This document shows positions 1 to 11,670 of a stretch of 64,000 nt of DNA, piece by piece. The notes below the pieces were generated by a model that worked only from the letters and a program-made list of their open reading frames with translations, was not told where the DNA came from and did no database searches. Source of the DNA: Pseudomethylobacillus aquaticus (GTDB taxonomy: Bacteria > Pseudomonadota > Gammaproteobacteria > Burkholderiales > Methylophilaceae); the NCBI RefSeq assembly GCF_003730115.1, contig NZ_RJVP01000001.1:310001-374000 (forward strand). The letters run 5' to 3'. The first letter of the stretch is position 1, and every line of letters starts with the position of its first letter. The translations under genes were made by a program, and so were the position numbers.

Positions 1-121
1 TCAAATAAATAACAATCAACAACAATATCAAGGCAGCCAACTGCACCATAGCGATATAATACAGAGCCCGATAAAAGCGTAGCCGGTGCTCGGGCTTTTT
101 CAACCAGTCATCGATGCGCAT
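1..121 (-). CDS. Small membrane protein, 5' part only (runs off the left edge)
   Basis: An open frame starts with ATG at 121 and is still open at base 1, giving at least 40 residues. The N-terminus is basic and polar (MRIDDWLKKPEHRLRFYRAL) and is followed by a hydrophobic stretch at about residues 21-40 that looks like a membrane helix. It lies 59 bp after the WD40-caspase gene on the same strand, so it is probably the last visible member of that cluster. The spacer before it holds two 14-bp near-copies ending in CCCCCAGAAAACA (plus strand, 131-158) and no good ribosome binding site. The family is not recognised and the C-terminus is outside the window. Confidence 0.5.
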   Translation of the reverse strand, partial: MRIDDWLKKPEHRLRFYRALYYIAMVQLAALILLLIVIYL

Positions 122-180
122 GACGCAAATACCCCCAGAAAACACCCCCCAGAAAACATCCCAAAGCTAGCAAACGCGCT

Positions 181-3100
181 TTACGGCAAGGTGCCGCGCG
201 GCATGCCCTGTTGTAGCTCGAACAAGCGGATGTCCTTGCCATAGCTCATCATCAGTGGCTCCTGCCGGTGTCGCAGCAGCTTGGCTATCCTCGCGGTCTC
301 GGCACGTGCATACGCGCCCCACTCGGTCACGCTGAGCTGGCGGTCCTGATCCTGATCGGCGGATCCACCGTCCATGGCCTTGAGCAAGGTGTGTGTGAAC
401 AGACCATTGTTGCGATAGCCATCCAGCGCCTCCTGGGTGGCGCTGGCCGAAGCGAACAGGTGCAAGCCCATATTGCGCGCCAGCACGCTGAAGCGTGCAT
501 CGTACAGGCCGCGCACCAGCCCCTGCACACCGCCAGCATGGCAGGTGTCCAGAATCACCAGCTGCCGGAACGCCTTGATACGCCGTGTGGCGTCCAGGAT
601 ACGGTCTGCAGAGTACAGGCTGGAGGCATCAGCGCGTCCATCCCAGTCATGCAATACCAGGCCGTACTGGGAGGCGGCATCCAGTGTGCCGTGGCTGGCC
701 AGGAACCAGACGAACACGTCCTGGGGTTTGGCTTGCTGCTGTATGGTCGTCAGCGCCTGCTCCACAGCACGGCGGTCCGCATGTTCATTGAGCAGCAACA
801 CGCCTGCCAGTCTGCCCGCAAAGCCAGTGCCCAGCTTTTGCTGGATGTATTGCGAGAAATCCTGCGCGTCCTTGGCGGCATACTGCAAGGCGGAAGCATG
901 CTCGCTGTGCTTGAAATGGTCCACCCCCACCGCAAGCAGCCACAGCCTGGGGGCGGGCGTCTCGCCTTCTGCCTGCACACTCACCGACTGCGGCCGGCTG
1001 CTGAGATCGCCAGCCGCATTGCTTGCGATGACCGTGAACTGGTTATCACCGGGAACCAACTCCACTTGCACGCGGTAGTGCGCCTGCCTGTGCGGGCTGC
1101 GTGGCAAAGATTGCGCCTGCGCCTTGCTGATCTCGGTAATGCGCTGCAATGAGCGCGTGAGGGTCGCGTCGTCCATGCTGGGCAGGCCGGGTGTAGCGCT
1201 GCCTGCCTGCTGTGCAGCGACATGGGCGGGCGGCGCCTTGTTCGGTGCCTTGTTCAGCACCTCGACCAGTTTGCCGTTGTGCAGCACGCGCAGCTCACCC
1301 AGGCCGCCGCCCTGATCATGTGCCGAGATGGCCAGGCTCACAGACTGAGTGGCCAACTGAGTGGCCGACCGAGTCGTTGATTGCATGCCAGTCCGCCCCG
1401 ATGGCGGCTTCAATAGCAGTGGCTGCAACTGCACTGCAGGTGCCGGCCTTTGCAGGGCGTCCTGCAGGGTGACAGTGATCAGGTCGTCGATCGCCTGCCT
1501 GTTCAACTGGCGCTGTACCAGATCGGGCCGGTAGAACACATCGTAGAACTGCGAGATACGGTAGACCTTGCCCTTGATGCGCACATTCAGCCAGCGGTCG
1601 CCATCGGCAGAGGCGGCAAAATAGCCCTGCGGCAGGATGGAGATCCATTCCGCATCGTCGAACTGGATCATGCGCACCACTTCGCTGCCGTCCTGCGCTT
1701 GCAGCAGGCGTATCGCGCCGTCGTCGCTGGCCAGCGCCAGCCGTTTATCCTGTTGCAGCCAGCTTAGCAGCCGGGGGGCCGGTTGCATCACCCCCAGGTC
1801 ACGCAAGCGCTTCAGGCCATCAATGCCCCAGTGCAGGGTCGCCAGCTGACCAGCCGTGCTGGCCACGGCAAGCTGCCCGCCGCTGCGGCTCAAGGCCATG
1901 GCCCGGACAGGCCGGTCGGCAGCATCGAACGCCTTCATGTAAGCGGGGTCTGCGTTGCCTAAGCGCCATAGCATCACATCCGGATGACCACTGGTCACGG
2001 CGCTATCCCCACCAGCATGCACCAGCACACTGGCCGCCGTGATGCCCCTGGGTAAGGTCCAGCGTTGCAGCGATCGTCCGCTGCTGTGATCGAACACCTC
2101 CAGCACGCCTACATGTGCATCCTGGTAAGGCAAGCCCTGCAAGGTGCTGGATACCCACACACGATCGCCCGTGGGCGACAACGCCACCGCCAGCGCCTGC
2201 CCGGCGAGCGGCAACTGATGATCCAGCTGCCAGCGGGCTTGCATCGGTTTCGCTAATGTCTGTCCCGGCTGCGCCTCTACACCCTGCACCTCTATACCTT
2301 GCGCCTGCCTGGACAGCAGCGAGATGGCATGCACGGCGGCCTGCTGTTGCGTCCCTGCACTGGAAGACGCCACCACCATGCGCTGCCCGTCCTCGGTGAG
2401 TGCCGTGGCGGTGACCACGCGTGCCGGGCCCGCTGATATTTCTTCGCTCAGCACCTGATTGGGGTCGCCCTGCTCCTGCTCATAACTCAGGTGCAGGTAC
2501 GCTGTCTCGTCCTGTGCATTGAGCGTGGCATGACGGATCAAACGCGGCTTGAGCGGTGCCACCGTGATGGTGTCCGGGAACAGCGGTGCAATAGAGCTGA
2601 ACTCGCCTGCGGTGTTCACGCCCAGCGAGGTGGTCGGCCCCAGTTGCCAGTCGCTGGATGCCGCCAGACGGCCGGATTGCAGGTCCCAGACACTCAAATG
2701 CTGGGCATGGCGCCGGAAACCACGCTCCGAATACAACACACGGATGCGTTCTGCCTGCGCGTCCGTGAGCGGCTGACCAGAGGTGATTTCGTCAAACACT
2801 TGCTGGGCGGTCAGGTAACGGCTCTTCTGAACACGCACACGCCCCTCGGACACGGCCAGCCGGTTCTGCGCCTCGCTGGCCACCATCTGCCGTGCCGCCA
2901 CGCCGCGACCTTCCAGCACGTGCTGTTGGACCCAGCTTGTCGCACTTTTTTGGTAGACACGCACCGCCTCGTCCCACAAGGCCAGTGCCAGCTGCTCGCC
3001 GCTGCGATCAAAACTGAGCTGCCCTTTAAGGAAAGGCGTACCCTGTGCGCCGCGCGTGTTGTAAAAAACCTGAGGCGGCGCATGATCCGTCAGCTTCCAG

Positions 3101-4002
3101 ATACGTACCGCCTCATGGCGCTGTGTGGCGTTGAGGCCATGATCCAGCAACACTTGCAGATCCATCTGCGCAGCGCTCGCCAGGGTCTGGCCATCCGGCG
3201 AGAACGCCAGCGCGGCGACATTGCCCTCATGGCCTTCCAGACGCCGGATCAACTGTCCGTCACGGGCATCGACGACCCACACCGCATGTTCATTGCCACC
3301 AGCCAGACTGCCGGTCGAGAACGCCAGTTGTCGCCCATCCGGGCTGATCTGCAGACTGGACAGTGGGCCGCTGGCCTGATGCAGGGGCTGCACTTGCCGG
3401 CTGGCGAGGTCCACACGCAGCACCTGACCGCTACGCGTCCCCACCCAGGCCACACGCTGCTGTGCATCCATGGCCAGCGTGGTAGCCGCGCCATGTTGCG
3501 CGGCTGGCAGTGCGATCTTCATCAGCGGCTCACTGCTGACACCAGACCAGCGCCACAAGCCGTCCTGCTCGCCCAGCGACCAGACCCCTGCCGCGCCCAG
3601 CGTTGTTTTCAATGCCACGATCAGCCCGGCATGTCCCTGCCAGGTGCGTATGGTTTGGCCATCGTCATAACGGCTCAACACGATATCCTGTCCGCTGCTG
3701 GCCCCGCCGGCAGAATAGACATAGCCGCCGTCCGCACTGAAGTCCACCGCCAGGCACAGGCCGGTGTGACGCTGCAAGGTGCGGTATTGCAGGCCACTCT
3801 CCACATCCCAGGCGATCACCGTACCACCACCATCACAGCTGGCCAGGCGCTTGCCATCCGGCGAGAACGCCAGTGCCGTGCCGGACATGGCATGACCGGT
3901 CTGTACAAACACCTCGTGTGCTTCTTTCGTCACTGCAGGGGCTGGGCTGGCCGCCACTGACAGCCCGGCAAGTAACAGCAGCCGTACCATGTGCAGGTGC
4001 AT
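181..4002 (-). CDS. Secreted WD40-repeat protein with C-terminal caspase-like (peptidase C14) domain
   Basis: A 1273-residue protein. An N-terminal signal peptide (hydrophobic residues about 5-20, start at 4002 or at the ATG 12 bp downstream) is followed by many WD40-type repeats over roughly residues 35-800, for example AFSPDGKRLAS and AFSPDGQTLAS. An Ig-like stretch lies near 880-1010 and a caspase fold near 1018-1260. The catalytic dyad is visible: His1104 in LASHGT and Cys1154 in LDTCHAGG. Bacterial caspase homologues of this kind (orthocaspases) usually cleave after basic residues; the specificity here is unknown. The gene starts 3 bp after the MlaE-type permease stop, so the two are probably co-transcribed. 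The WD40 propeller would be the partner-binding platform. The export signal suggests a periplasmic protease, which is an inference. Confidence 0.85.
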   Translation of the reverse strand: MHLHMVRLLLLAGLSVAASPAPAVTKEAHEVFVQTGHAMSGTALAFSPDGKRLASCDGGGTVIAWDVESGLQYRTLQRHTGLCLAVDFSADGGYVYSAGGASSGQDIVLSRYDDGQTIRTWQGHAGLIVALKTTLGAAGVWSLGEQDGLWRWSGVSSEPLMKIALPAAQHGAATTLAMDAQQRVAWVGTRSGQVLRVDLASRQVQPLHQASGPLSSLQISPDGRQLAFSTGSLAGGNEHAVWVVDARDGQLIRRLEGHEGNVAALAFSPDGQTLASAAQMDLQVLLDHGLNATQRHEAVRIWKLTDHAPPQVFYNTRGAQGTPFLKGQLSFDRSGEQLALALWDEAVRVYQKSATSWVQQHVLEGRGVAARQMVASEAQNRLAVSEGRVRVQKSRYLTAQQVFDEITSGQPLTDAQAERIRVLYSERGFRRHAQHLSVWDLQSGRLAASSDWQLGPTTSLGVNTAGEFSSIAPLFPDTITVAPLKPRLIRHATLNAQDETAYLHLSYEQEQGDPNQVLSEEISAGPARVVTATALTEDGQRMVVASSSAGTQQQAAVHAISLLSRQAQGIEVQGVEAQPGQTLAKPMQARWQLDHQLPLAGQALAVALSPTGDRVWVSSTLQGLPYQDAHVGVLEVFDHSSGRSLQRWTLPRGITAASVLVHAGGDSAVTSGHPDVMLWRLGNADPAYMKAFDAADRPVRAMALSRSGGQLAVASTAGQLATLHWGIDGLKRLRDLGVMQPAPRLLSWLQQDKRLALASDDGAIRLLQAQDGSEVVRMIQFDDAEWISILPQGYFAASADGDRWLNVRIKGKVYRISQFYDVFYRPDLVQRQLNRQAIDDLITVTLQDALQRPAPAVQLQPLLLKPPSGRTGMQSTTRSATQLATQSVSLAISAHDQGGGLGELRVLHNGKLVEVLNKAPNKAPPAHVAAQQAGSATPGLPSMDDATLTRSLQRITEISKAQAQSLPRSPHRQAHYRVQVELVPGDNQFTVIASNAAGDLSSRPQSVSVQAEGETPAPRLWLLAVGVDHFKHSEHASALQYAAKDAQDFSQYIQQKLGTGFAGRLAGVLLLNEHADRRAVEQALTTIQQQAKPQDVFVWFLASHGTLDAASQYGLVLHDWDGRADASSLYSADRILDATRRIKAFRQLVILDTCHAGGVQGLVRGLYDARFSVLARNMGLHLFASASATQEALDGYRNNGLFTHTLLKAMDGGSADQDQDRQLSVTEWGAYARAETARIAKLLRHRQEPLMMSYGKDIRLFELQQGMPRGTLP

Positions 4003-4005
4003 GAT

Positions 4006-4731
4006 TCAGATCCCGATGGCATGTAACAACAAGGCAAGCCCCGCCCAGGCGAGCATACTGCCCAGCATGGCCCAGCGTATCGCACCGGTCGCCAGGTACT
4101 GCACAGACTCGCGCTCGCTGTGCCTGAGGCGTCCCGGCCAGGCATACAGGCAAACCGGCAGCATGCCGCCCATGACCAGCACCCAGGCTTTGATGGAGCA
4201 CAGCAGATAGGCCCACGGGTTCAAGGCCAGCAGCACGGCGTCCAGCAGCCCGGAATACGGCGTCTGATCCTGCAAGGTGGTGACCAGCATGGCAGTGAGC
4301 AGCACCGTGACCGAACCCAGCGCCGCCATGGCGAACGCCACCGCTGCATGCGCATACAGGCTGGGGATGGCCGGGAACGCCGCCGGGCCATAGCCCGCCA
4401 GTCTCAAACCCTCGAACCCACCGTCGCGCTGACGCTGGTGCAGATCACTCGCCAGCAAGGGTGCGGCATGCAGCAAGACGACCAGCGCCACCATCAGCGG
4501 GGCGATATGCAGTACCCAGCTTTGCCATAGCGTGGTGAGCGCCGTCAGGTGAGCGCTACCCAGCACGGATGCCAGGCTGTGGAACAGCACTACCGCGAAG
4601 ATGGCCGCGCCCAGCAACACATACGGCAAGGCATGGCGATGAGCCTGGGCGTACACCTGCCAGAAATAGGCGCGTGGCAAAGGCAGACTGCAGGCAGCGC
4701 GCGCATGCCAGAGCAGTTTCAGTGTGCCCAC
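4006..4731 (-). CDS. MlaE-like ABC transporter permease of an MCE system
   Basis: About 241 residues with five or so hydrophobic segments. The central part (APLLASDLHQRQRDGGFEGL and the following RLAGYGPAAFP) matches the MlaE/TrbB-type permease pattern, in which a cytoplasmic helix contacts the ATPase. I chose the GTG at 4731 because AGGAGGG lies about 9 bases upstream and the frame then overlaps the previous gene by only 13 bases; the longer open frame to 4779 lacks a good start. In Mla systems the permease dimer works with an MCE protein and an ATPase to move phospholipid between membranes; both partner types are encoded upstream in this cluster (8183-9106 and 9109-9663). Family assignment rests on pattern and context, so it is moderately sure. 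Confidence 0.65.
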   Translation of the reverse strand: MGTLKLLWHARAACSLPLPRAYFWQVYAQAHRHALPYVLLGAAIFAVVLFHSLASVLGSAHLTALTTLWQSWVLHIAPLMVALVVLLHAAPLLASDLHQRQRDGGFEGLRLAGYGPAAFPAIPSLYAHAAVAFAMAALGSVTVLLTAMLVTTLQDQTPYSGLLDAVLLALNPWAYLLCSIKAWVLVMGGMLPVCLYAWPGRLRHSERESVQYLATGAIRWAMLGSMLAWAGLALLLHAIGI

Positions 4732-5549
4732 AATTGCAGTCCCTCCTGCTCGGGTCGTTGGCTGGCCACTTGCTCCCATAGCAGGCGGGCATCATGGTGG
4801 TAACCGGCACGTTCCAGCTCGGCGGCCTGCATGACACGCATGGCCGCATCGGCCTCCCCGGTAAAATAGTCGGCATAACCTAGGTCTTCCGCAGCGAGCA
4901 CCTCGAACTCCGCAGTTTTGACTGCGCCTGGCTTGCCCAACTCCTCCAGCACCCAGGTGTAACGGCCCGCTGGCAGCGGTGTAGCCAGGGCATGGCGGAC
5001 ATCCGTGGTGCTGACATCCAGCAAGGGGATCGCGTCATGCGCCGCCATCAACCGCACTCGGAAACTGCCACTGCCCTGCCAGCGCAGCGTCACGCGGTAT
5101 GGCAGCACCTTCTCATCCACAGGGCCCAGCATGCGCAGCTGATCGTTGCTGCGCATCACCACCGCCCCCAGCGCCATGCGTTCCCGATGGGCCGGTTCGA
5201 TGGCGGCCAGCGCCTGACCTGCGCCCTTGTTCGAGCTTAATGCCCGCGGTGGCGCACCACTGACGCTTTTAGGGGCATCCGTCGCCAGCATCAGGCGGGC
5301 CGGGCCGTCCACCTGCCAGCGCTGCGAAGTGCCCAGATACACCAGCTGCAACTGCGCCCCGGCGGCCAGCGTGATATCTGCCTGTGCTGGCAGATAATCC
5401 AGCATGCGCACCGGCTGGCTGGCACGGCCCTTTTGTTCACTCACGACCTTGCCTTTGGCATCCACCACCACGGCCAGATCCTGTGCCCAGCCCAGCACGG
5501 GCAGCATCAAGACCAATATCAAGACCGTTCTATTCAGTTGATCACGCAT
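4719..5549 (-). CDS. Periplasmic FecR-like protein
   Basis: 276 residues with a clear signal peptide (hydrophobic residues 9-20, likely cleavage after GWAQ). Residues about 45-100 (DYLPAQADITLAAGAQLQL, VYLGTSQRWQVDGPARL) resemble the FecR beta-sandwich. A second beta-rich region (about 150-220) reads like an Ig-type domain ending in RYTWVLEEL, and the C-terminal 60 residues are helical and TPR-like. Start: ATG at 5549 with AAGGAG about 8 bases upstream, the site overlapping the cyclase stop region. FecR-domain proteins often sit beside CHASE2 proteins and caspases in bacterial clusters. No transmembrane helix beyond the signal is seen, so it should be soluble in the periplasm. Specific role unknown. 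Confidence 0.6.
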   Translation of the reverse strand: MRDQLNRTVLILVLMLPVLGWAQDLAVVVDAKGKVVSEQKGRASQPVRMLDYLPAQADITLAAGAQLQLVYLGTSQRWQVDGPARLMLATDAPKSVSGAPPRALSSNKGAGQALAAIEPAHRERMALGAVVMRSNDQLRMLGPVDEKVLPYRVTLRWQGSGSFRVRLMAAHDAIPLLDVSTTDVRHALATPLPAGRYTWVLEELGKPGAVKTAEFEVLAAEDLGYADYFTGEADAAMRVMQAAELERAGYHHDARLLWEQVASQRPEQEGLQLWAH

Positions 5550-5559
5550 GATGCTCTCC

Positions 5560-7344
5560 TTATTCCCATACCAACTCGTGGTAGCTGGCCGCCGTACCGG
5601 TCTGGCCTATGCCCTTGAATGCCACGGCCTCACCGATGGCGCGGCTGACACGCACCGTCATGTCGCGGCCTTCGGGTGGCGCAGCGGCCAGCTGTTCGGC
5701 CTGCTCGATCGCCTGCCCCATCACCACGAAGGGATAAGCGCCGCGTATGCTCACCTGCCCACTCAGCAAGGGGCCGGCCGCCAAGCCCATGGAGACCTTG
5801 ATGTGCAGACCTGCAGCCGTGATCGGGCGGCTCCACACCGCAAACGAGCGCTGCAGCTGCAGCGCCGCTTCCAGCGCAGCCTGTTCAGGCGCAGGCAATG
5901 GCACCGGGATACCGAACCAGGCCGACACCTCCTGACCGTGCAAGCGGTCCAGCATGCCACCGGCGTGCTCCACCGTGTCTTTCACGGCATCGTAGAACAC
6001 CGCCAGCGCATCCAGCCGGTGTGCCTGACCGGACAGCGTACCGGCATCCTCCAGATGCAGCCGGATCACCAGCACGGCCCCCGCCGTCTGGCGCGGCACC
6101 AGCTCGGCACTGGGGGCGCTGGAACGGGAATGCAGGATGTTGTTGAGCATGGCCGGACTGACATGGCCTGCGAATGCCTGGGTCAGGCGCTTGCGGTGAT
6201 GGGACAGACGGCGGCTCTCCAGCGCCTGGCGCGACACATAGGCGGTCTTGGCTGCCAGGATCATGCCAGCCGGCATCAGCACATGGCCCAGCCACAGCAC
6301 ATACAGGCAGGCGATGGGGATCAGCAGGAACAAGGACCAGTAAACGATGTTCTTCTTGAGCCCATAACCGAACCAGCACAGGCAACAGGCCACGATCAGC
6401 AGCCATTCCAATGGCTGTGACACCTGCTTGAGCAAGCCCTGGTTCAACAACGCGCGTAGCAGCTGGGCATGCACCATCACACCTGGGATACGGCTGTTAT
6501 CGGGCTCTTGCGCAAACAGCGGGGCGGGTACTTTCAATCGGTCTTCCAGCGGCAGCACCAGCCCCACCAGCACCGGCTTGCCCTGGAACCAGTCACGCAG
6601 GCCATCCACATCGCCACGCTCAAACCTTGCCAGCACCTCGTGCATGGGGATGTAGTGCATGGCCGCACCGCGCCGGAAGTCGATGAGCCCATGACCACGC
6701 TCGGGCACTTGCAGGCGCTGTGCCATACGCGCCGCCAGCCCCTGATTGCGGCCCTGCGCCGAGCACAGCGAGGACTGCTGACGCCGCACCACGCCGTCCT
6801 CGTCCCAGCACAGCAAGGCAGACGCCAGCTGCCAGGGCTCCATCAGCGCAGTATAGCCAGCAAAGATAGGACGCGGACGCAGTTGCTCGTCCAGCGTCTG
6901 CGCGAACACCAGCGGCATGCGGTCACGTGCCTCCAGGATAGGCAGCATCAGGGCCCGGTCTATGCCCGGCACAACGGTCTCATAAGATTTGGCTGGCAGG
7001 ACCACATCGACCCCCACCACACTGGGCTGCGCCTGCAGCAGCGCTTGCAGCAGACGCCCCAGGTGCGGATGCCACAAGGCGAACGGTTCCGGAAACTGCC
7101 TGAACGTGGCCTCATCGATGCCGATGACCACCACCTCGTTGGCCAGCGGCGGCGTGGACATGCGCCGCAGGGTACGCACCCCGGCATCGTACAAGCGCCA
7201 TTCCGCACTCTGAAAACTGGCAATGGATTGCACGCTCAGAGCAAACGCACACAAGGCCAGAAAGACCAGGCCATGCACCCACAAGCCGCCTTTTAACAGC
7301 CATAACTCAAGTTTTTCGTATAAGGATGTGAATCGGGCAGGCAT
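5560..7344 (-). CDS. CHASE2 sensor with degenerate class III adenylate/guanylate cyclase domain
   Basis: 594 residues: a first membrane helix (about 25-45), a periplasmic CHASE2 domain (about 50-310, with VVVIGIDEATF and VVGVDVVLP typical of the family), three membrane helices (about 315-385) and a cytoplasmic cyclase fold (about 415-590). Fold landmarks remain (MGLAAGPLLSGQ and RGAYPFVVMGQAIEQAEQLA), but both metal-binding aspartates appear replaced. The usual ADIRGF position reads VIRLHLED near residue 424, and the usual GDAVMAVFG reads GQEVSAWFG near 467. The NxxxR transition-state motif reads EQAEQ. It is therefore probably catalytically dead and may act as a sensor or scaffold. A 32-bp spacer separates it from the TPR lipoprotein gene; no strong ribosome binding site is seen. 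Confidence 0.8.
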   Translation of the reverse strand: MPARFTSLYEKLELWLLKGGLWVHGLVFLALCAFALSVQSIASFQSAEWRLYDAGVRTLRRMSTPPLANEVVVIGIDEATFRQFPEPFALWHPHLGRLLQALLQAQPSVVGVDVVLPAKSYETVVPGIDRALMLPILEARDRMPLVFAQTLDEQLRPRPIFAGYTALMEPWQLASALLCWDEDGVVRRQQSSLCSAQGRNQGLAARMAQRLQVPERGHGLIDFRRGAAMHYIPMHEVLARFERGDVDGLRDWFQGKPVLVGLVLPLEDRLKVPAPLFAQEPDNSRIPGVMVHAQLLRALLNQGLLKQVSQPLEWLLIVACCLCWFGYGLKKNIVYWSLFLLIPIACLYVLWLGHVLMPAGMILAAKTAYVSRQALESRRLSHHRKRLTQAFAGHVSPAMLNNILHSRSSAPSAELVPRQTAGAVLVIRLHLEDAGTLSGQAHRLDALAVFYDAVKDTVEHAGGMLDRLHGQEVSAWFGIPVPLPAPEQAALEAALQLQRSFAVWSRPITAAGLHIKVSMGLAAGPLLSGQVSIRGAYPFVVMGQAIEQAEQLAAAPPEGRDMTVRVSRAIGEAVAFKGIGQTGTAASYHELVWE

Positions 7345-7376
7345 ATCGGGTACGCGGTTCGCTTGATCCTAGCTGT

Positions 7377-8186
7377 TCAACGTAACTTGCCAGCCGCAGC
7401 ACGTGCCCGTTCTGCGGCCTGACGGTATTGAGCGGCCTTGGCCACATCGCCTGCGGCGGCATGCGCCTCGGCAAGCAATTGCAGATCCAATGCGATACGC
7501 GGCGGCAGACCGAGCCGCTGGTCGATCGCTAACGCCTGCTCCGCTGCCAGGATGGCAGCCTGCGCCTGCTGCAACTTGAGCTCGGCCTGAGCCAGCACAC
7601 GCAAGGCATTGGCCTGCTCGCGCGGCTTGTCTGCGGCCAGCAGACTGGCCTGACTGGCTTTATCCTTGCCCTCGACCCAGGCGCCGCGTGCAAGGGCGAT
7701 GCGGGCTTGCAGCACGGTCAATGCGGCGTGGTCGGGGCAGCGGCTATGGCATTCCGTCTGCGCCTGCAGCGCAGCGGTAGCGGCGGCTTCGCTATCCCCT
7801 TGCGCCAGCCACAACGATGCTTTGCGCCCCAGCAACTGCGACCTGTCAGCAGCGCTTAATGCCAGATCCGTCGTCAGGGCCTGCTGCACGCATTGCATGG
7901 CCTCCTCGACCCGGCCAGATTCCGACAATGCACGACTCAGCCCCAGTACCGCCTGGGTGCGCTGCGGCAAGGCATACAAACCGTCATACAGCACGATGGC
8001 CTGCTGGAACTGCTGCACAGCGCGTTCCGGCTGCCCGAGTGCCAGCGCACGGCTGGCGGCATTGAAGCGCTGGTCTGCCTGCTGGTGCGTGGCACTGACA
8101 GGCGCGCCTTTGCTGGCACAAGCGGCAGCCAGCCACATCATTACCAACAGTACGCCCAGCAGGGTTGGCTTGACTCGCTGACTCAT
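7377..8186 (-). CDS. TPR-repeat lipoprotein
   Basis: 269 residues. The N-terminus is a lipoprotein signal with lipobox LAAAC, the lipidated Cys being residue 23. The rest is alanine-rich helical TPR-type repeats (FNAASRALALGQPERAVQQF, AVLGLSRALSESGRVEEAM and others). The residues after the Cys (Ala, Ser) do not suggest inner-membrane retention, so the protein is probably anchored in the outer membrane facing the periplasm. Its start codon overlaps the MCE gene stop by 4 bases (ATGA), so the two are translationally coupled. By position it could be the outer-membrane tether of the MCE system, in the place MlaA or PqiC takes elsewhere, but it does not resemble either; this role is inference. Confidence 0.7.
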   Translation of the reverse strand: MSQRVKPTLLGVLLVMMWLAAACASKGAPVSATHQQADQRFNAASRALALGQPERAVQQFQQAIVLYDGLYALPQRTQAVLGLSRALSESGRVEEAMQCVQQALTTDLALSAADRSQLLGRKASLWLAQGDSEAAATAALQAQTECHSRCPDHAALTVLQARIALARGAWVEGKDKASQASLLAADKPREQANALRVLAQAELKLQQAQAAILAAEQALAIDQRLGLPPRIALDLQLLAEAHAAAGDVAKAAQYRQAAERARAAAGKLR

Positions 8187-9106
8187 GGCGGACTCGCCTC
8201 GAAACTGTCCAGCCGGGGTGGCGCATCGACCTGGACCTGCAGCATGGTGCTGAACGGCCAGCTATGCCGCAGCCCGTCCGACATGACAGCGGCGTCTTCC
8301 GCCACATGCCGGCCTGCACGTAGGGCGGGTGGGATGTTCTGATTGAGTTCGCTCAGCAGCAGATTCACCTGCACACTGCTCTGCCTGGCCTGCCCCAACA
8401 CTTCTTGCAGATCACCCAGCAGTTGGCCACGCTGTGCCGCGATGTCTTCGATCAGCGCGTTGGCATGGGCACTGCTCTGCCTGACGTTGGCGGTGGTGCT
8501 CTCCACGTTGCGCGCCACTTGCTGCGCCTGCTGGCGCAAGCCCGGCATGGCCTGCACGGCTTGCTGGGTGATGGCGCCGACATCGGTCAGGATGGGGTCT
8601 ATCTTACTGAGCGTGCTGTTCATCTGATCCAGGGTCTTTTTGGCGGTGAGCAGCATGTCCTCCAGCTCCTGGCCAGTCTCCAGCATCAAGGTCTTGCCCG
8701 CCGACAAGCGGGTCTTTTCCTTGAGGTTGGGATAGAGGTCGATATGCTTGTTGGCGACCGGTGTATCGCGCCCCACTTTGGCGACAGTGTCGCTGCTCAA
8801 CAGATTGAGACGCGCGGTCTCGATACGCAGCCTGGCGCGCACCGTCAGGTCGCTCTGCAACTCGACGGCATCCACCTCGCCGACCTGAAAGCCGCGCAGG
8901 CGCACCGGCGTGCCCAGGTTCACGCCTGCAGCCGCCTGCAGTTCGATATACACATGGCTACTGGGGGTGAACACGCCTTGCCGGTATGCGCTCAAGGCCA
9001 TGAGCAGCAGCAGCGCCAGGCAGGCGATGATCCAGCCGGACTGGCTGCGCCATGTCGGGCTGGGCTCCAAACCTGAAGTTGGCTGCGCCTGGAGATGCGC
9101 TGGCAT
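8183..9106 (-). CDS. MCE-domain (MlaD-like) substrate-binding protein
   Basis: 307 residues. A single N-terminal membrane helix (about residues 22-40, IIACLALLLLMALSAY) is followed by the MCE domain (about 45-130), with the family pattern AAAGVNLGTPVRLRGFQVGEV and VGRDTPVANKHIDLYP. A long helical region follows (about 145-270), as in PqiB/YebT or Mce proteins that build a tunnel. I chose ATG at 9106 because GAGGAGG lies about 11 bases upstream and it begins two bases after the ATPase-like stop; the frame is open further to 9148. Established role of the family: hexameric periplasmic lipid-binding ring working with an MlaE permease and an MlaF ATPase. Substrate here is unknown. Confidence 0.85.
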   Translation of the reverse strand: MPAHLQAQPTSGLEPSPTWRSQSGWIIACLALLLLMALSAYRQGVFTPSSHVYIELQAAAGVNLGTPVRLRGFQVGEVDAVELQSDLTVRARLRIETARLNLLSSDTVAKVGRDTPVANKHIDLYPNLKEKTRLSAGKTLMLETGQELEDMLLTAKKTLDQMNSTLSKIDPILTDVGAITQQAVQAMPGLRQQAQQVARNVESTTANVRQSSAHANALIEDIAAQRGQLLGDLQEVLGQARQSSVQVNLLLSELNQNIPPALRAGRHVAEDAAVMSDGLRHSWPFSTMLQVQVDAPPRLDSFEASPP

Positions 9107-9108
9107 GG

Positions 9109-9663
9109 TCAAGGGATAACCTCCTCCTCGGCATGCGCTTCCAGCCATGCCAGCTGTCGCCAGGGGAATTGCTGGGCATAAGCCTGCTGGAACTGCGCCG
9201 CCTGCAAGCTGCCGATCGGCCAGTCACTGCGCTGCAACTGCAACACCCTGGGGTTGCAGAGCAGCGCCCGCGAGATCCAGATCTTGGCACGCTCGGTCGC
9301 TGACACCTGTTCCGGGAAGCTGTGTGCCAGTGAGGGCCAGTCTATAGGCGCGCCACAGCGCATGAACAGCTGGTCCAGCTGCTGTATAGCGACCGGGTTG
9401 GGAGGCGCATGACCTAAATGCGTGGCGATGAAAAGATTGTCCAGCAAGGACAGGTCGAACATCAGGCCGGGGCGCGCCAGGATGGTGTGTGCGTTCACAG
9501 GCCGCCCCGCGAGCAAGGAGAACGTTTCGGCATCAGGGCGTGGTGGGTCGTGCAGGAACACAGATGGCAATGAGCAGGCCCATAAGCAGGCCAACAAGTA
9601 GTGCCTGGCTGGATGAGCACGCAGGTGCGCGCTCCCCGGCTGGCTGGATACGGTAACAAGCAA
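9109..9663 (-). CDS. Degenerate ABC-type ATPase subunit, probably non-catalytic; 5' end uncertain
   Basis: 184 residues that follow the layout of an MlaF-type ATPase, with the catalytic motifs lost. The Walker A region reads SSQPGSAHL (no Gly-Lys-Ser/Thr). The Q-loop area reads GLMFDLSLLDNL, the signature region reads QVSATERAKIWISRALL, and the Walker B position reads VLQLQRSD in place of hhhhDE. The frame opens only with TTG at 9663. A much better start (ATG at 9671 with GGGGGAG about 7 bases upstream) is in another frame whose residues TCVLIQPG resemble the strand before a P-loop. A one-base shift near 9605 would join the two, so a frameshift or sequencing error is possible. It is the first gene of the cluster, upstream of the MCE gene. 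Confidence 0.5.
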   Translation of the reverse strand: MLVTVSSQPGSAHLRAHPARHYLLACLWACSLPSVFLHDPPRPDAETFSLLAGRPVNAHTILARPGLMFDLSLLDNLFIATHLGHAPPNPVAIQQLDQLFMRCGAPIDWPSLAHSFPEQVSATERAKIWISRALLCNPRVLQLQRSDWPIGSLQAAQFQQAYAQQFPWRQLAWLEAHAEEEVIP

Positions 9664-10039
9664 CCCTTCATTTCCAGCTCCCCCACTGAAAAGAAAGCAT
9701 CTCTACGCGATATCAGGGGCGTAGGCCGCCTGCTCGCCATGCTGTTGTGCTACACCAACAATCTCATTGTTATCGGCAAAGCCGGGCGTCCCGCTCTGCC
9801 TGTCCCCCTGCTGGCCCGGCGATCACTGCCGCCTTGAGATGGCAACATCAGGATGACAAACCCGATAGTAACCCTGTTTTCTGCCAGCTTCCAGCGATGC
9901 GTGCAGGCGGCACAAGCCACCACCAGCCTATACTTGCTTTGTTTGCAGGAACAGCGTCATCCCAGAAACCTGCGCAGTACACTAGAATGCCGCTTGGACT
10001 TCACCTCTCAACACCTCCATGCAACGAAAGTGAGTTTTT
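9664..10039. other. Divergent intergenic region
   Basis: 376 bp between the minus-strand MCE/caspase cluster and the plus-strand DUF808 gene. It should hold both promoters. I see no convincing -10/-35 pair, repeat or RNA gene. The open frames across it are short, lack ribosome binding sites and resemble nothing I know, apart from the first bases of the alternative start for the ATPase-like gene (ATG at 9671). Confidence 0.4.
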
Positions 10040-10912
10040 ATGGCCGTTGGTATCCTCGCCATCCTCGATGACATCGCCACCATTCTGGACGATGTCGCCA
10101 CGCAAGCCGCTGCACCATTGAAAAAGACCGCAGGCATCATAGGCGACGATCTCGCCGTGAATGCCAACACCGTCAATGGCATCGCCTCGGAGCGCGAATG
10201 GCCGGTGGTGCTGTCCATCTTCCTGGGCTCGCTGGCCAACAAGATCGTGCTGGCGCCACTGATCGTGCTCATGAGTGTCTACCTGCCCTGGCTGATCACC
10301 CCCTTGCTGATACTGGGCGGCATCTACCTTTGCTACGAAGGCGGTGAAAAACTGTTCCACCGCAAGAGCAAAGAAGATAGGAACCATGAGGCGGACCTGA
10401 AAGTCGCGTTCCAGTTATCGGCGGATGACATGCTGAAGGTGGAACGCACCCGCATCCGCAGTGCCATCATGACCGACATCATCCTCAGCTTCGAGATCCT
10501 GATGATCATGCTGTCTGCATTGGGCGACATGGACGCGATGACTAAATTCTTCTACCTGCTGGGATTGGGCGTGCTGGTCACCGTGCTGATCTACGGCTTT
10601 GTGTATGGCCTGCTGCGCATGGACGACCTGGGGGCAAAGCTGGTGCAGGCAGCGGGCTGCATCCGCCAACGCATAGGCGGCTGGCTATTGAAAGCCATGC
10701 CCTGGACGATGCGCCTGCTGGGCATCGTCGGCGCTGCTGCCATGTTCGCGGTGGGGGGCGGGCTGATCAGCCATAACATCGAAATCGTTCACGAGCTTCT
10801 AGCAAAAGCGCATGCCTGGAACATCCCTGCCATGCTGACAGAAGCGGTGTTCGGTGTGATGGTGGGTGGGGTGATGGTGGTGCTGATGAAGCTTAAGAAC
10901 TTAACGCGTTAA
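10040..10912 (+). CDS. DUF808 (YedI-type) inner-membrane protein
   Basis: 290 residues. The opening (GILAILDDIATILDDVATQA) and the later GIIGDDLAVNANTVNGIASE are hallmarks of the DUF808/YedI family. Four to six hydrophobic segments follow (about 60-100, 135-185, 215-240, 265-285), so it is an integral membrane protein of unknown function. Length is normal for the family. The start ATG at 10040 has only a weak site (GTGAG). It appears to be a single-gene unit: divergent from the MCE cluster and 189 bp before vapB. After the stop a possible hairpin (GCAGGGA...TCCCTGC, 10932-10956) lacks a T-run. Confidence 0.85.
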   Translation: MAVGILAILDDIATILDDVATQAAAPLKKTAGIIGDDLAVNANTVNGIASEREWPVVLSIFLGSLANKIVLAPLIVLMSVYLPWLITPLLILGGIYLCYEGGEKLFHRKSKEDRNHEADLKVAFQLSADDMLKVERTRIRSAIMTDIILSFEILMIMLSALGDMDAMTKFFYLLGLGVLVTVLIYGFVYGLLRMDDLGAKLVQAAGCIRQRIGGWLLKAMPWTMRLLGIVGAAAMFAVGGGLISHNIEIVHELLAKAHAWNIPAMLTEAVFGVMVGGVMVVLMKLKNLTR

Positions 10913-11101: not shown

Positions 11102-11299
11102 ATGCGTACAACGTTAACCATTGATGATGATTTGTTGGCTGAAGCGGTTCAGTTAAGCGGGATCAGCGAAAAGTCTGCTGTGTTACGCGAGGGATTAAAA
11201 GCCTTGATCGAACGCGAGAGTGCCAAGCGGCTGGCGCGCCTGGGCGGCTCCGAACCCGAGTTGACAGCCCCTGCGCGTCGCCAGCGTGATGCTGCGTGA
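11102..11299 (+). CDS. vapB: VapB-type antitoxin
   Basis: 65 residues. The first part (MRTTLTIDDDLLAEAVQLSG) is a ribbon-helix-helix DNA-binding segment of the VapB/type II antitoxin family; SEKSAVLREGLKALIERES completes it. The C-terminal tail (about 45-65) would wrap and block the toxin. I chose ATG at 11102 over the ATG at 11069 because AAAGGA lies about 8 bases upstream and the domain begins exactly there. Its stop overlaps the vapC GTG start by 4 bases (GTGA), the usual coupling in this class. The palindromes upstream fit autoregulation. Confidence 0.85.
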   Translation: MRTTLTIDDDLLAEAVQLSGISEKSAVLREGLKALIERESAKRLARLGGSEPELTAPARRQRDAA

Positions 11300-11670
11300 A
11301 CGTTCTGGCAGATACCTCAGTTTGGGTTGACCATCTGCGCGACGGCGATGCCGAGCTGGCTGTTCTGCTGCAGGCAGGGCGTGTGTGCTGTCACCCGATG
11401 ATTTTGGGCGAACTGGCTTGTGGCAACTTGAAGAACCGTCATGAAGTACTTGGTCTGTTACGCAATCTCACTTCAGCCACCGAAGCCAAACATGAGGAAG
11501 TGTTGCAGCTGATTGAGCGTTACAGCTTGATGGGTAAAGGCATAAGCCTTGTGGATGTGCATTTGCTGGCGGCTTGCATGCTGACAGCCGAGACCAGGCT
11601 GTGGACTCGGGACAGGCGCCTGGCGAGTATTGCGCAAGCAATGGATTTGGGATTTATCGCGGCGCATTGA
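11296..11670 (+). CDS. vapC: VapC-type PIN-domain ribonuclease toxin
   Basis: 124 residues, a full-length PIN domain. The acidic metal-binding residues are all present: Asp in LADTSVWVDH, Glu in LGELACGN, Asp in SLVDVHLLAAC and Asp in WTRDRRL. VapC toxins cut tRNA or rRNA when free of VapB. The start is GTG at 11296 overlapping the vapB stop. The gene ends 27 bp from the 3' end of tRNA-Ser, which is encoded on the opposite strand; toxin-antitoxin pairs are often found beside tRNA genes. No att-like duplication of the tRNA end was seen. Confidence 0.9.
   Translation: MNVLADTSVWVDHLRDGDAELAVLLQAGRVCCHPMILGELACGNLKNRHEVLGLLRNLTSATEAKHEEVLQLIERYSLMGKGISLVDVHLLAACMLTAETRLWTRDRRLASIAQAMDLGFIAAH

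What the first reader, a model, noticed from the sequence alone, without database searches (positions are those of the whole stretch)
1..9663. MCE lipid-transport-like cluster carrying a caspase-WD40 protein, a CHASE2/cyclase-fold protein and a FecR-like protein
Eight minus-strand genes with overlaps or very short gaps combine an MCE protein, an MlaE-type permease and an ATPase-like subunit with a TPR lipoprotein, a CHASE2 membrane sensor, a FecR-like periplasmic protein and a secreted WD40-caspase. MCE systems normally carry only transport subunits; CHASE2, FecR and caspase proteins normally belong to signalling clusters. Joined in one transcript, they look like an envelope system that couples lipid handling or envelope sensing to a periplasmic protease. 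Components and spacing are seen in the sequence; the joint function is inference.
Basis: partly seen in the sequence, partly recalled or inferred. Interest (0 to 1): 0.8.

Follow-up and report, generated by a model that had tools for sequence, protein, structure and literature searches.

The report
Lipid-transport operon with dead ATPase, caspase
A seven-gene bacterial operon joins a lipid-transport machine whose motor subunit has lost its ATP-binding motifs to a membrane sensor and a probably secreted caspase-like protease, and looser versions of this partnership recur in other bacterial phyla, hinting at a motorless lipid system tied to envelope signalling.

Summary
The cluster is real: seven (not eight) minus-strand genes, 181-9663: degenerate ABC ATPase, MCE protein, TPR lipoprotein, CHASE2 protein, a FecR-like protein (label weak), MlaE-family permease, WD40-caspase. 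The main discovery is that the ATPase is a pseudo-ATPase of a widespread unnamed MCE subtype, MlaE-psiATPase-MCE-TPR. An ATPase-based scan gave 68 loci (Gallionellaceae-type, Chitinibacteraceae, Nitrospirota, Desulfobacterota and others), none with Walker A or LSGG. MCE-based searches added members, including ones that keep a P-loop. Of 107 non-canonical ATPases, 82 lack Walker A, signature and catalytic Glu together, while the GLISNLxVWEN segment stays nearly invariant. The predicted fold is MlaF-like (Z 25.1). Linkage to signalling genes recurs: in 26 genomes a caspase or CHASE2 gene lies within 10 kb of 13 of 26 psi loci but of 2 of 58 other MCE loci; 19 of 21 Gallionellaceae-type loci carry CHASE2 inside the operon; 36 of 68 loci show no link. 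In the window the cyclase domain is dead too, while the caspase His/Cys pair is intact. Best reading: an MCE lipid conduit without its own ATP drive, coupled to CHASE2 sensing and a periplasmic caspase. Architecture is shown; function is inferred.

The parts
9109..9663 (-). pseudo-ATPase (degenerate ABC cassette of MlaF type); TTG start as listed is uncertain, N-terminal half poorly supported
   Evidence: aligned motif columns TVSSQPGS / VSATE / VLQLQRS; residues 1-43 pLDDT under 50, rest mostly 70-94; Foldseek to ABC ATPases, E about 1e-5
8183..9148 (-). MCE (MlaD-domain) protein with N-terminal hydrophobic segment
   Evidence: PF02470 E 5e-12; family alignment; Ka/Ks 0.136
7377..8186 (-). 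TPR lipoprotein (signal peptide with Cys; shared C..C pair), fourth subunit of the module
   Evidence: TPR_16/TPR_2; family alignment with invariant Cys
5560..7344 (-). CHASE2 membrane sensor with a catalytically dead class III cyclase-like domain
   Evidence: PF05226 E 8.5e-30; all four catalytic positions lost
   Evidence: no Pfam/NCBIfam match; homologues in L072-L076
4006..4779 (-). divergent MlaE-family permease
   Evidence: PF02405 E 4.4e-9; family alignment; Ka/Ks 0.056
181..4002 (-). WD40-caspase with N-terminal signal-peptide-like segment; His (LASHG) and Cys (ILDTCHAGG) present
   Evidence: WD40 and PF00656 E 1.5e-10; active-site columns; signal peptide read by eye

Best explanation
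The operon encodes an MCE lipid-transfer apparatus of a distinct four-subunit type (MlaE permease, pseudo-MlaF, MCE protein, TPR lipoprotein) that works without ATP hydrolysis by its own cassette. The pseudo-ATPase is kept as a structural or regulatory clamp on the permease through a nearly invariant segment, so lipid flow is probably passive, gated or sensed, not pumped. The system is tied to CHASE2 signalling: in Nitrospirota and Desulfobacterota the linked CHASE2 protein is a cyclase with its catalytic residues, sometimes beside cyclic-nucleotide-binding or phosphodiesterase-like genes. In the window the cyclase is dead, so CHASE2 would pass the envelope state on by contact, to the FecR-like protein and the secreted WD40-caspase, the one enzyme of the operon whose active-site pair is intact. 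Shown: architecture, motif loss, predicted fold, selection, recurrence across phyla, linkage above background. Inferred: ATP-independence, direction of lipid flow, sensor-to-protease coupling, periplasmic location.
For: All 68 ATPases of the scan lack Walker A and LSGG; of 107 non-canonical ATPases 82 lack Walker A, signature and catalytic Glu, with GLISNLxVWEN nearly invariant in the rows without Walker A. Predicted fold is MlaF-like, Z 25.1. MlaE, MCE and CHASE2 are under purifying selection although the cassette is degenerate. Within the same 26 genomes 13 of 26 psi loci but 2 of 58 other MCE loci have a caspase or CHASE2 gene within 10 kb, Fisher p 1.2e-6; for caspases over all 31 genomes 11 of 31 against 1 of 64, p 1e-5. 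CHASE2 sits inside the operon in 19 of 21 Gallionellaceae-type loci. All 11 linked caspases and the window's keep His and Cys. E. coli MlaF K47R abolishes ATPase activity and does not complement (PMC5016091, passages).
Against: 36 of 68 loci show neither CHASE2 nor caspase. 15 of 45 ATPases inspected in the MCE-based searches keep a P-loop by pattern (3 of them LSGG, i.e. canonical), so ATP binding is not lost throughout the wider group. The psi genomes are related, so p-values overstate independence. L106 and L108 have CHASE2 but no caspase; Gallionellaceae-type loci have no caspase. No binding, transport or protease activity was measured. MCE function without ATP is known for PqiB/LetB but with other inner-membrane partners.
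Confidence: 0.5

Rival explanations
1. The pseudo-ATPase is half of a mixed cassette: it pairs with an active ATPase from another locus (for example the cell's own MlaF), giving a transporter with one degenerate and one working site, still ATP-driven.
For: Degenerate/active cassette pairs are known in other ABC transporters (recalled). The own genome also has a canonical set at C4 with an intact MlaF-type ATPase (GGSGSGKT, LSGGM).
Against: No second ATPase lies in the psi modules inspected, except L089, where a separate canonical MCE set is 4 kb away. The window's own protein has lost even the N-terminal part with the P-loop region.
Confidence: 0.15
2. MCE module and CHASE2/caspase genes are neighbours without a joint function: signalling islands rich in caspases happen to collect them, or a shared ancestor fixed the order.
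For: 36 of 68 loci lack the link; caspase genes cluster in some of these genomes; stand-alone CHASE2 pairs with FecR-like and caspase/CHAT genes occur without MCE (L072-L076).
Against: Other MCE loci of the same genomes are not near such genes (2 of 58). Arrangements differ between groups, and linked CHASE2 proteins fall in two separate clades. In 9 of 11 genomes the linked caspase is the best match of the genome to the window's caspase (matched by hand; one, L109, by a tie in bits).
Confidence: 0.25
3. The window's operon is decaying: ATPase and cyclase are dead because the system is being lost in this genus.
For: The ATPase part has the weakest constraint (Ka/Ks 0.369), and its upstream frame is interrupted by TGA in the sister species; all four cyclase positions are lost.
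Against: MlaE 0.056, CHASE2 0.082 and MCE 0.136 are under purifying selection. The dead ATPase state is shared across phyla with a conserved segment.
Confidence: 0.1

Closest known systems
MlaFEDB and other MlaE-type MCE ABC transporters
   Same: MCE protein, MlaE permease and a MlaF-like cassette fold
   Different: Cassette without Walker A, signature or catalytic Glu; TPR lipoprotein as neighbour; the window operon has no MlaB, MlaC or MlaA gene
PqiAB and LetAB
   Same: MCE transport with an inner-membrane partner that lacks an ATPase domain (PMC12436622, passages)
   Different: Their inner-membrane protein (PqiA/LetA) is not MlaE (recalled); here a MlaE permease and a dead cassette remain
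CHASE2 adenylate/guanylate cyclases (Sinorhizobium CyaD1, CyaD2, CyaK)
   Same: CHASE2 sensor with cyclase-like domain, linked to envelope signals via the outer-membrane protein NsrA (PMC13001267, passages)
   Different: Window cyclase lacks the four catalytic positions; operon with an MCE module
Prokaryotic caspase homologues (orthocaspases/metacaspases) with WD40
   Same: WD40 plus Peptidase_C14; WD40 among the four commonest partner domains in PMC3501461 (passages)
   Different: Neighbour of a pseudo-ATPase MCE module; the search found no 'Mce' or 'FecR' in that paper's main text

Membership tests
MlaE-type MCE ABC transporter | MCE (MlaD) domain protein | tested here: met
   PF02470 E 5e-12, over cut-off
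MlaE-type MCE ABC transporter | MlaE-family permease | tested here: met
   PF02405 E 4.4e-9, over cut-off
MlaE-type MCE ABC transporter | ATPase with Walker A, signature and Walker B/Glu | tested here: not met
   aligned columns TVSSQPGS / VSATE / VLQLQRS
MlaE-type MCE ABC transporter | lipid transport activity | not testable with these tools
   needs biochemistry
Class III nucleotide cyclase (window CHASE2 protein) | two metal-binding Asp, Asn and Arg of the active site | tested here: not met
   all four lost in window and L018
CHASE2 domain protein | CHASE2 profile over its cut-off | tested here: met
   PF05226 104.6 bits, cut-off 26.3
Peptidase C14 (caspase) | C14 profile and His/Cys pair | tested here: met
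   PF00656 41.7 bits, cut-off 21.4; LASHG and ILDTCHAGG; activity not tested
FecR | FecR profile PF04773 | tested here: not met
   no hit for 4719-5549 at E up to 1

The most novel reading that the evidence does not exclude
A previously undescribed, multi-phylum class of MCE lipid-transfer systems has repeatedly given up ATP hydrolysis, keeping a pseudo-ATPase as a structural clamp beside a TPR lipoprotein. It serves as an envelope lipid-state sensor whose output runs through CHASE2 (by cyclic nucleotide where the cyclase is alive, by contact where it is dead) to secreted caspase-family proteases: a bacterial pathway linking lipid homeostasis to caspase proteolysis.
Probability: 0.3. Interest if true: 0.92.

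Novelty: new variant of a known kind. Interest (0 to 1): 0.78.

Why it matters
How MCE systems are energised, and which way lipids move, is debated. A natural family in which the P-loop state changed at least six times on the MCE tree, while permease and MCE genes stay under selection in the window's genus, gives a natural test of what ATP does in these machines. Its recurrent link to CHASE2 proteins and caspases offers a concrete candidate role for bacterial caspase homologues, whose functions are mostly unknown (recalled). Named isolates among the hosts of psi loci make it testable: Trichlorobacter thiogenes ATCC BAA-34, Andreprevotia lacus DSM 23236, Chitinilyticum piscinae 4Y14, Chitinibacter sp. 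GC72.

Tried and rejected
Considered and rejected or left open. (1) 'The ATPase motifs are missing through a sequencing error': rejected; the sister species has the same degenerate C-terminal part and motif loss is shared by scores of relatives. (2) 'A unique local accident': rejected. (3) 'A defence system': PADLOC gave a caspase-domain hit (6.6e-11) and weak PycC and ZorA hits; not pursued. (4) A frameshift relation between the ORF 9495-9740 and the 9109-9663 frame: looked at by eye, unresolved, not claimed. (5) Promoter and terminator scans at both ends found nothing above shuffles. (6) History in the family: among 199 relatives the permease has strong matches only in the own and the same-genus genome, next best E 5e-8. 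(7) While checking this report I withdrew my claim that a local profile ties the window's FecR-like protein to PF04773 proteins: the two profiles find separate sets. I also withdrew 'all Gallionellaceae-type cyclases lost Asn and Arg': none keeps all four, but L092 keeps Asn, L098 and L105 keep Arg. (8) Literature: searches (open-access PMC library only, no bioRxiv) listed nothing on pseudo-ATPase MCE systems or MCE-caspase linkage. Passages were read of PMC3501461, PMC12436622, PMC5016091 and PMC13001267 only; the rest are listings.

Limits of counts. The 26 genomes were chosen after I had seen, from 31 loci mostly titled Nitrospirota, Nitrospinota or Desulfobacterota (L107 is unnamed; L112 is a Muproteobacteria). 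The five left out (L112, L116, L119, L121, L124) have short contigs and neither partner, but some short contigs with a partner (L126, L115, L127, L114) were kept, so the choice favours the link. I searched those five later for MCE and caspase: no caspase on any MCE contig, giving 11 of 31 against 1 of 64. Four loci with Gallionella(ceae) titles (L133, L134, L136, L147) lie on another branch and have no CHASE2 or caspase. Tree: 109 of 128 MCE rows; 18 duplicate or thinned loci and L126 (too short) dropped; 10 duplicate loci dropped, 111 rows, 4 with LSGG. Searches use slightly different P-loop patterns (L184 and L189 count as intact only in 59 and 87). In one search the best 30 matches only became loci. 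The psi label was set by hand from locus positions. A 74-aa caspase fragment in L125 was not counted.
Full report
Observation. The window lies at C1:310001-374000 of a 2.55 Mb, 21-contig genome. Minus-strand ORFs at 181-4002, 4006-4779, 4719-5549, 5560-7344, 7377-8186, 8183-9148 and 9109-9663 form a compact set with overlaps or gaps of 3-32 bp. DUF808 (10040-10912) reads away on the other strand, and a 124-aa + strand ORF ends about 90 bp before the window's first base. That makes seven genes, not eight. Pfam gives MCE, MlaE, TPR, CHASE2 and WD40 plus Peptidase_C14; the ATPase-like and FecR-like proteins match nothing on their own. The only relative with the whole operon among those searched is a genome of the same genus (G001). 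Ka/Ks between the two is 0.056 (MlaE), 0.082 (CHASE2), 0.136 (MCE), 0.176 (caspase), 0.21 (TPR), 0.238 (FecR-like) and 0.369 (C-terminal part of the ATPase). Permease and MCE genes are maintained although the ATPase is degenerate.

A pseudo-ATPase MCE family. Relatives in the same order showed a common four-gene unit: MlaE, a short ATPase-like protein, MCE and a TPR lipoprotein. A scan of named genomes with five of these ATPase-like proteins gave 68 loci: 22 Gallionellaceae-type (L084-L105; titles vary), 31 mostly titled Nitrospirota, Nitrospinota or Desulfobacterota, and 15 others, among them Chitinibacteraceae and a Prosthecobacter bin. None of the 68 matched ATPases has a Walker A or LSGG motif. 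That scan started from dead ATPases, so I searched again with an MCE profile, itself built from such loci: 22 of 369 genomes of the window's class and 115 of 297 genomes of the phylum of L122 match at E<=1e-20. All 22 class loci and the best 30 of the phylum matches were inspected. An ATPase lies beside MCE in 45 of 52: 28 lack Walker A, 14 keep it without LSGG, 3 are canonical. The weaker phylum matches were not inspected and may well hold active cassettes. A sister group (L191-L196, L198, L200, L201) keeps Walker A with signature LSLG/LSLE. Over 111 distinct modules 4 have LSGG; of the other 107, 91 lack Walker A, 88 lack the catalytic Glu and 82 lack all three. Typical replacements are TKSDDEKT or VRSESQRA for the P-loop, LPVHE or LSLYE for the signature, and YDSL for YDEP. 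In the rows without Walker A the segment next to the Q-loop, GLISNLxVWEN, is almost invariant while Walker A positions are nearly free. In known transporters this region faces the permease (recalled), so contact with MlaE seems to be what selection keeps.

Fold. AlphaFold2 of the L106 protein on 42 family members gives pLDDT 93.6 and pTM 0.90. The best match by VIA-align is MlaF of E. coli MlaFEDB (6xbd_I, Z 25.1, 2.1 A over 208 residues), tied within 1 Z with YbbA and other MlaF entries; Foldseek ranks two FtsE entries first and MlaF third. 29 of 42 members match PF00005. The window's own protein is confident in its C-terminal part only; residues 1-43 are under pLDDT 50, and it matches ABC ATPases at E about 1e-5. 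In the sister species the frame upstream carries a TGA, so the genus may be shedding the N-terminal part.

Evolution. On an MCE tree of 109 rows the P-loop state needs 8 changes, at least 6 by starred branches; the direction is not inferred, the search was quick and long branches are present. Repeated loss is the natural reading, since canonical relatives have a P-loop. E. coli MlaF with K47R has no detectable ATPase activity and does not complement (PMC5016091, passages).

Signalling neighbours. In 19 of 21 assessable Gallionellaceae-type loci a CHASE2 gene sits between TPR and MlaE, as in the window, where the FecR-like gene follows it. Among the 31 loci of the second group, 11 have a caspase and 5 a CHASE2 protein in the fetched stretch, 13 one or the other; the 15 others have neither. 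L122 (Geobacter title) carries WD40-caspase, a FecR-TPR protein, CHASE2-guanylate cyclase, a metallo-beta-lactamase-fold protein that also matches PDEase_II, MlaE, psiATPase, MCE and TPR on one strand; L127 has the same order up to its contig end in MCE. L106 adds a BrkB protein with a cNMP-binding domain after TPR, then CHASE2-cyclase, DUF4384 and a CHAT protein on the other strand. Strong homologues of that BrkB protein follow TPR in seven loci (L106, L111, L113, L114, L115, L123, L125).

Background test. In 26 of those 31 genomes I located CHASE2 (66 rows), caspase (116) and MCE (94 rows, 84 loci) genes. A caspase lies within 10 kb of 11 of 26 psi loci and 1 of 58 other MCE loci; CHASE2 of 5 of 26 and 1 of 58; either of 13 of 26 and 2 of 58, Fisher p 1.2e-6. 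The 26 were picked after seeing the neighbourhoods. With the other five added, caspases stand at 11 of 31 against 1 of 64, p 1e-5, and counting the five as misses 'either' is 13 of 31 against 2 of 58, p 9.3e-6. By gene density 0.79 psi loci with a caspase and 0.44 with CHASE2 would be expected. The genomes are related, so p-values overstate the case; but arrangements differ between groups, and linked CHASE2 proteins fall into a far clade and a clade shared with stand-alone FecR-like/CHASE2 pairs, which points to at least two recruitments (window and Gallionellaceae-type are not resolved). In 9 of 11 genomes the linked caspase is the genome's best match to the window's caspase, L109 by a tie in bits; L120 and L150 are the exceptions (matched by hand).

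Enzyme state. The five cyclases linked to psi loci in the second group, and four of five stand-alone ones, keep all four catalytic positions. None of the 19 Gallionellaceae-type rows (17 distinct) keeps all four, and the window and its sister lack all four. The caspase His and Cys are present in the window and in all 11 linked caspases. In the window's operon two enzymes have died while the protease has not.

Mechanism. I propose a lipid conduit without its own ATP drive, held together by a pseudo-ATPase, whose occupancy or assembly is read by CHASE2 and passed to cyclic-nucleotide signalling where the cyclase is alive, and to the FecR-like and WD40-caspase proteins by contact in the window. 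Conduit without own ATP drive: about 0.75. Functional tie to CHASE2/caspase: about 0.55. Sensor-to-protease order: about 0.35. These are judgements, not computed.

Novelty. NCBIfam has no specific family for six window proteins (the caspase was not scanned) or for four L106 module proteins; hits are generic and below cut-off. Nine literature searches listed no description (Tried and rejected). I rate it a new variant of a known kind: MCE transport by homology, outside the MCE ABC transporters as defined by an active cassette.

Noticed in passing
L106, L111, L113, L114, L115, L123, L125: A BrkB-type membrane protein (with a C-terminal cNMP-binding domain in L106) follows the TPR gene of the psi MCE module in seven loci: a possible cyclic-nucleotide output.
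   Followed up: partly
L072-L076: Stand-alone pairs of a CHASE2-cyclase and a FecR-like protein related to the window's, with a caspase (L073, L076) or CHAT protein (L072, L074, L075) nearby and no MCE gene found.
   Followed up: partly
window 9640-9740: Stretch upstream of the psiATPase is almost unchanged between the two species although neighbouring sequence differs; could be regulatory or coding in another frame.
   Followed up: no
L089:3651-6606: A second MCE set with an intact, Walker A-bearing ATPase lies about 4 kb from the psi MCE module.
   Followed up: no
L118, L120, L126, L150, L106, L108: DUF4384-type proteins sit beside the caspase, CHAT or CHASE2 genes of psi MCE loci.
   Followed up: no
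window 11296-11670: Lone PIN-domain ORF (PF01850); partner not looked for.
   Followed up: no
L154, L156, L157, L167, L190: Cassettes that keep a P-loop but not the signature: possible ATP-binding-only intermediates.
   Followed up: partly
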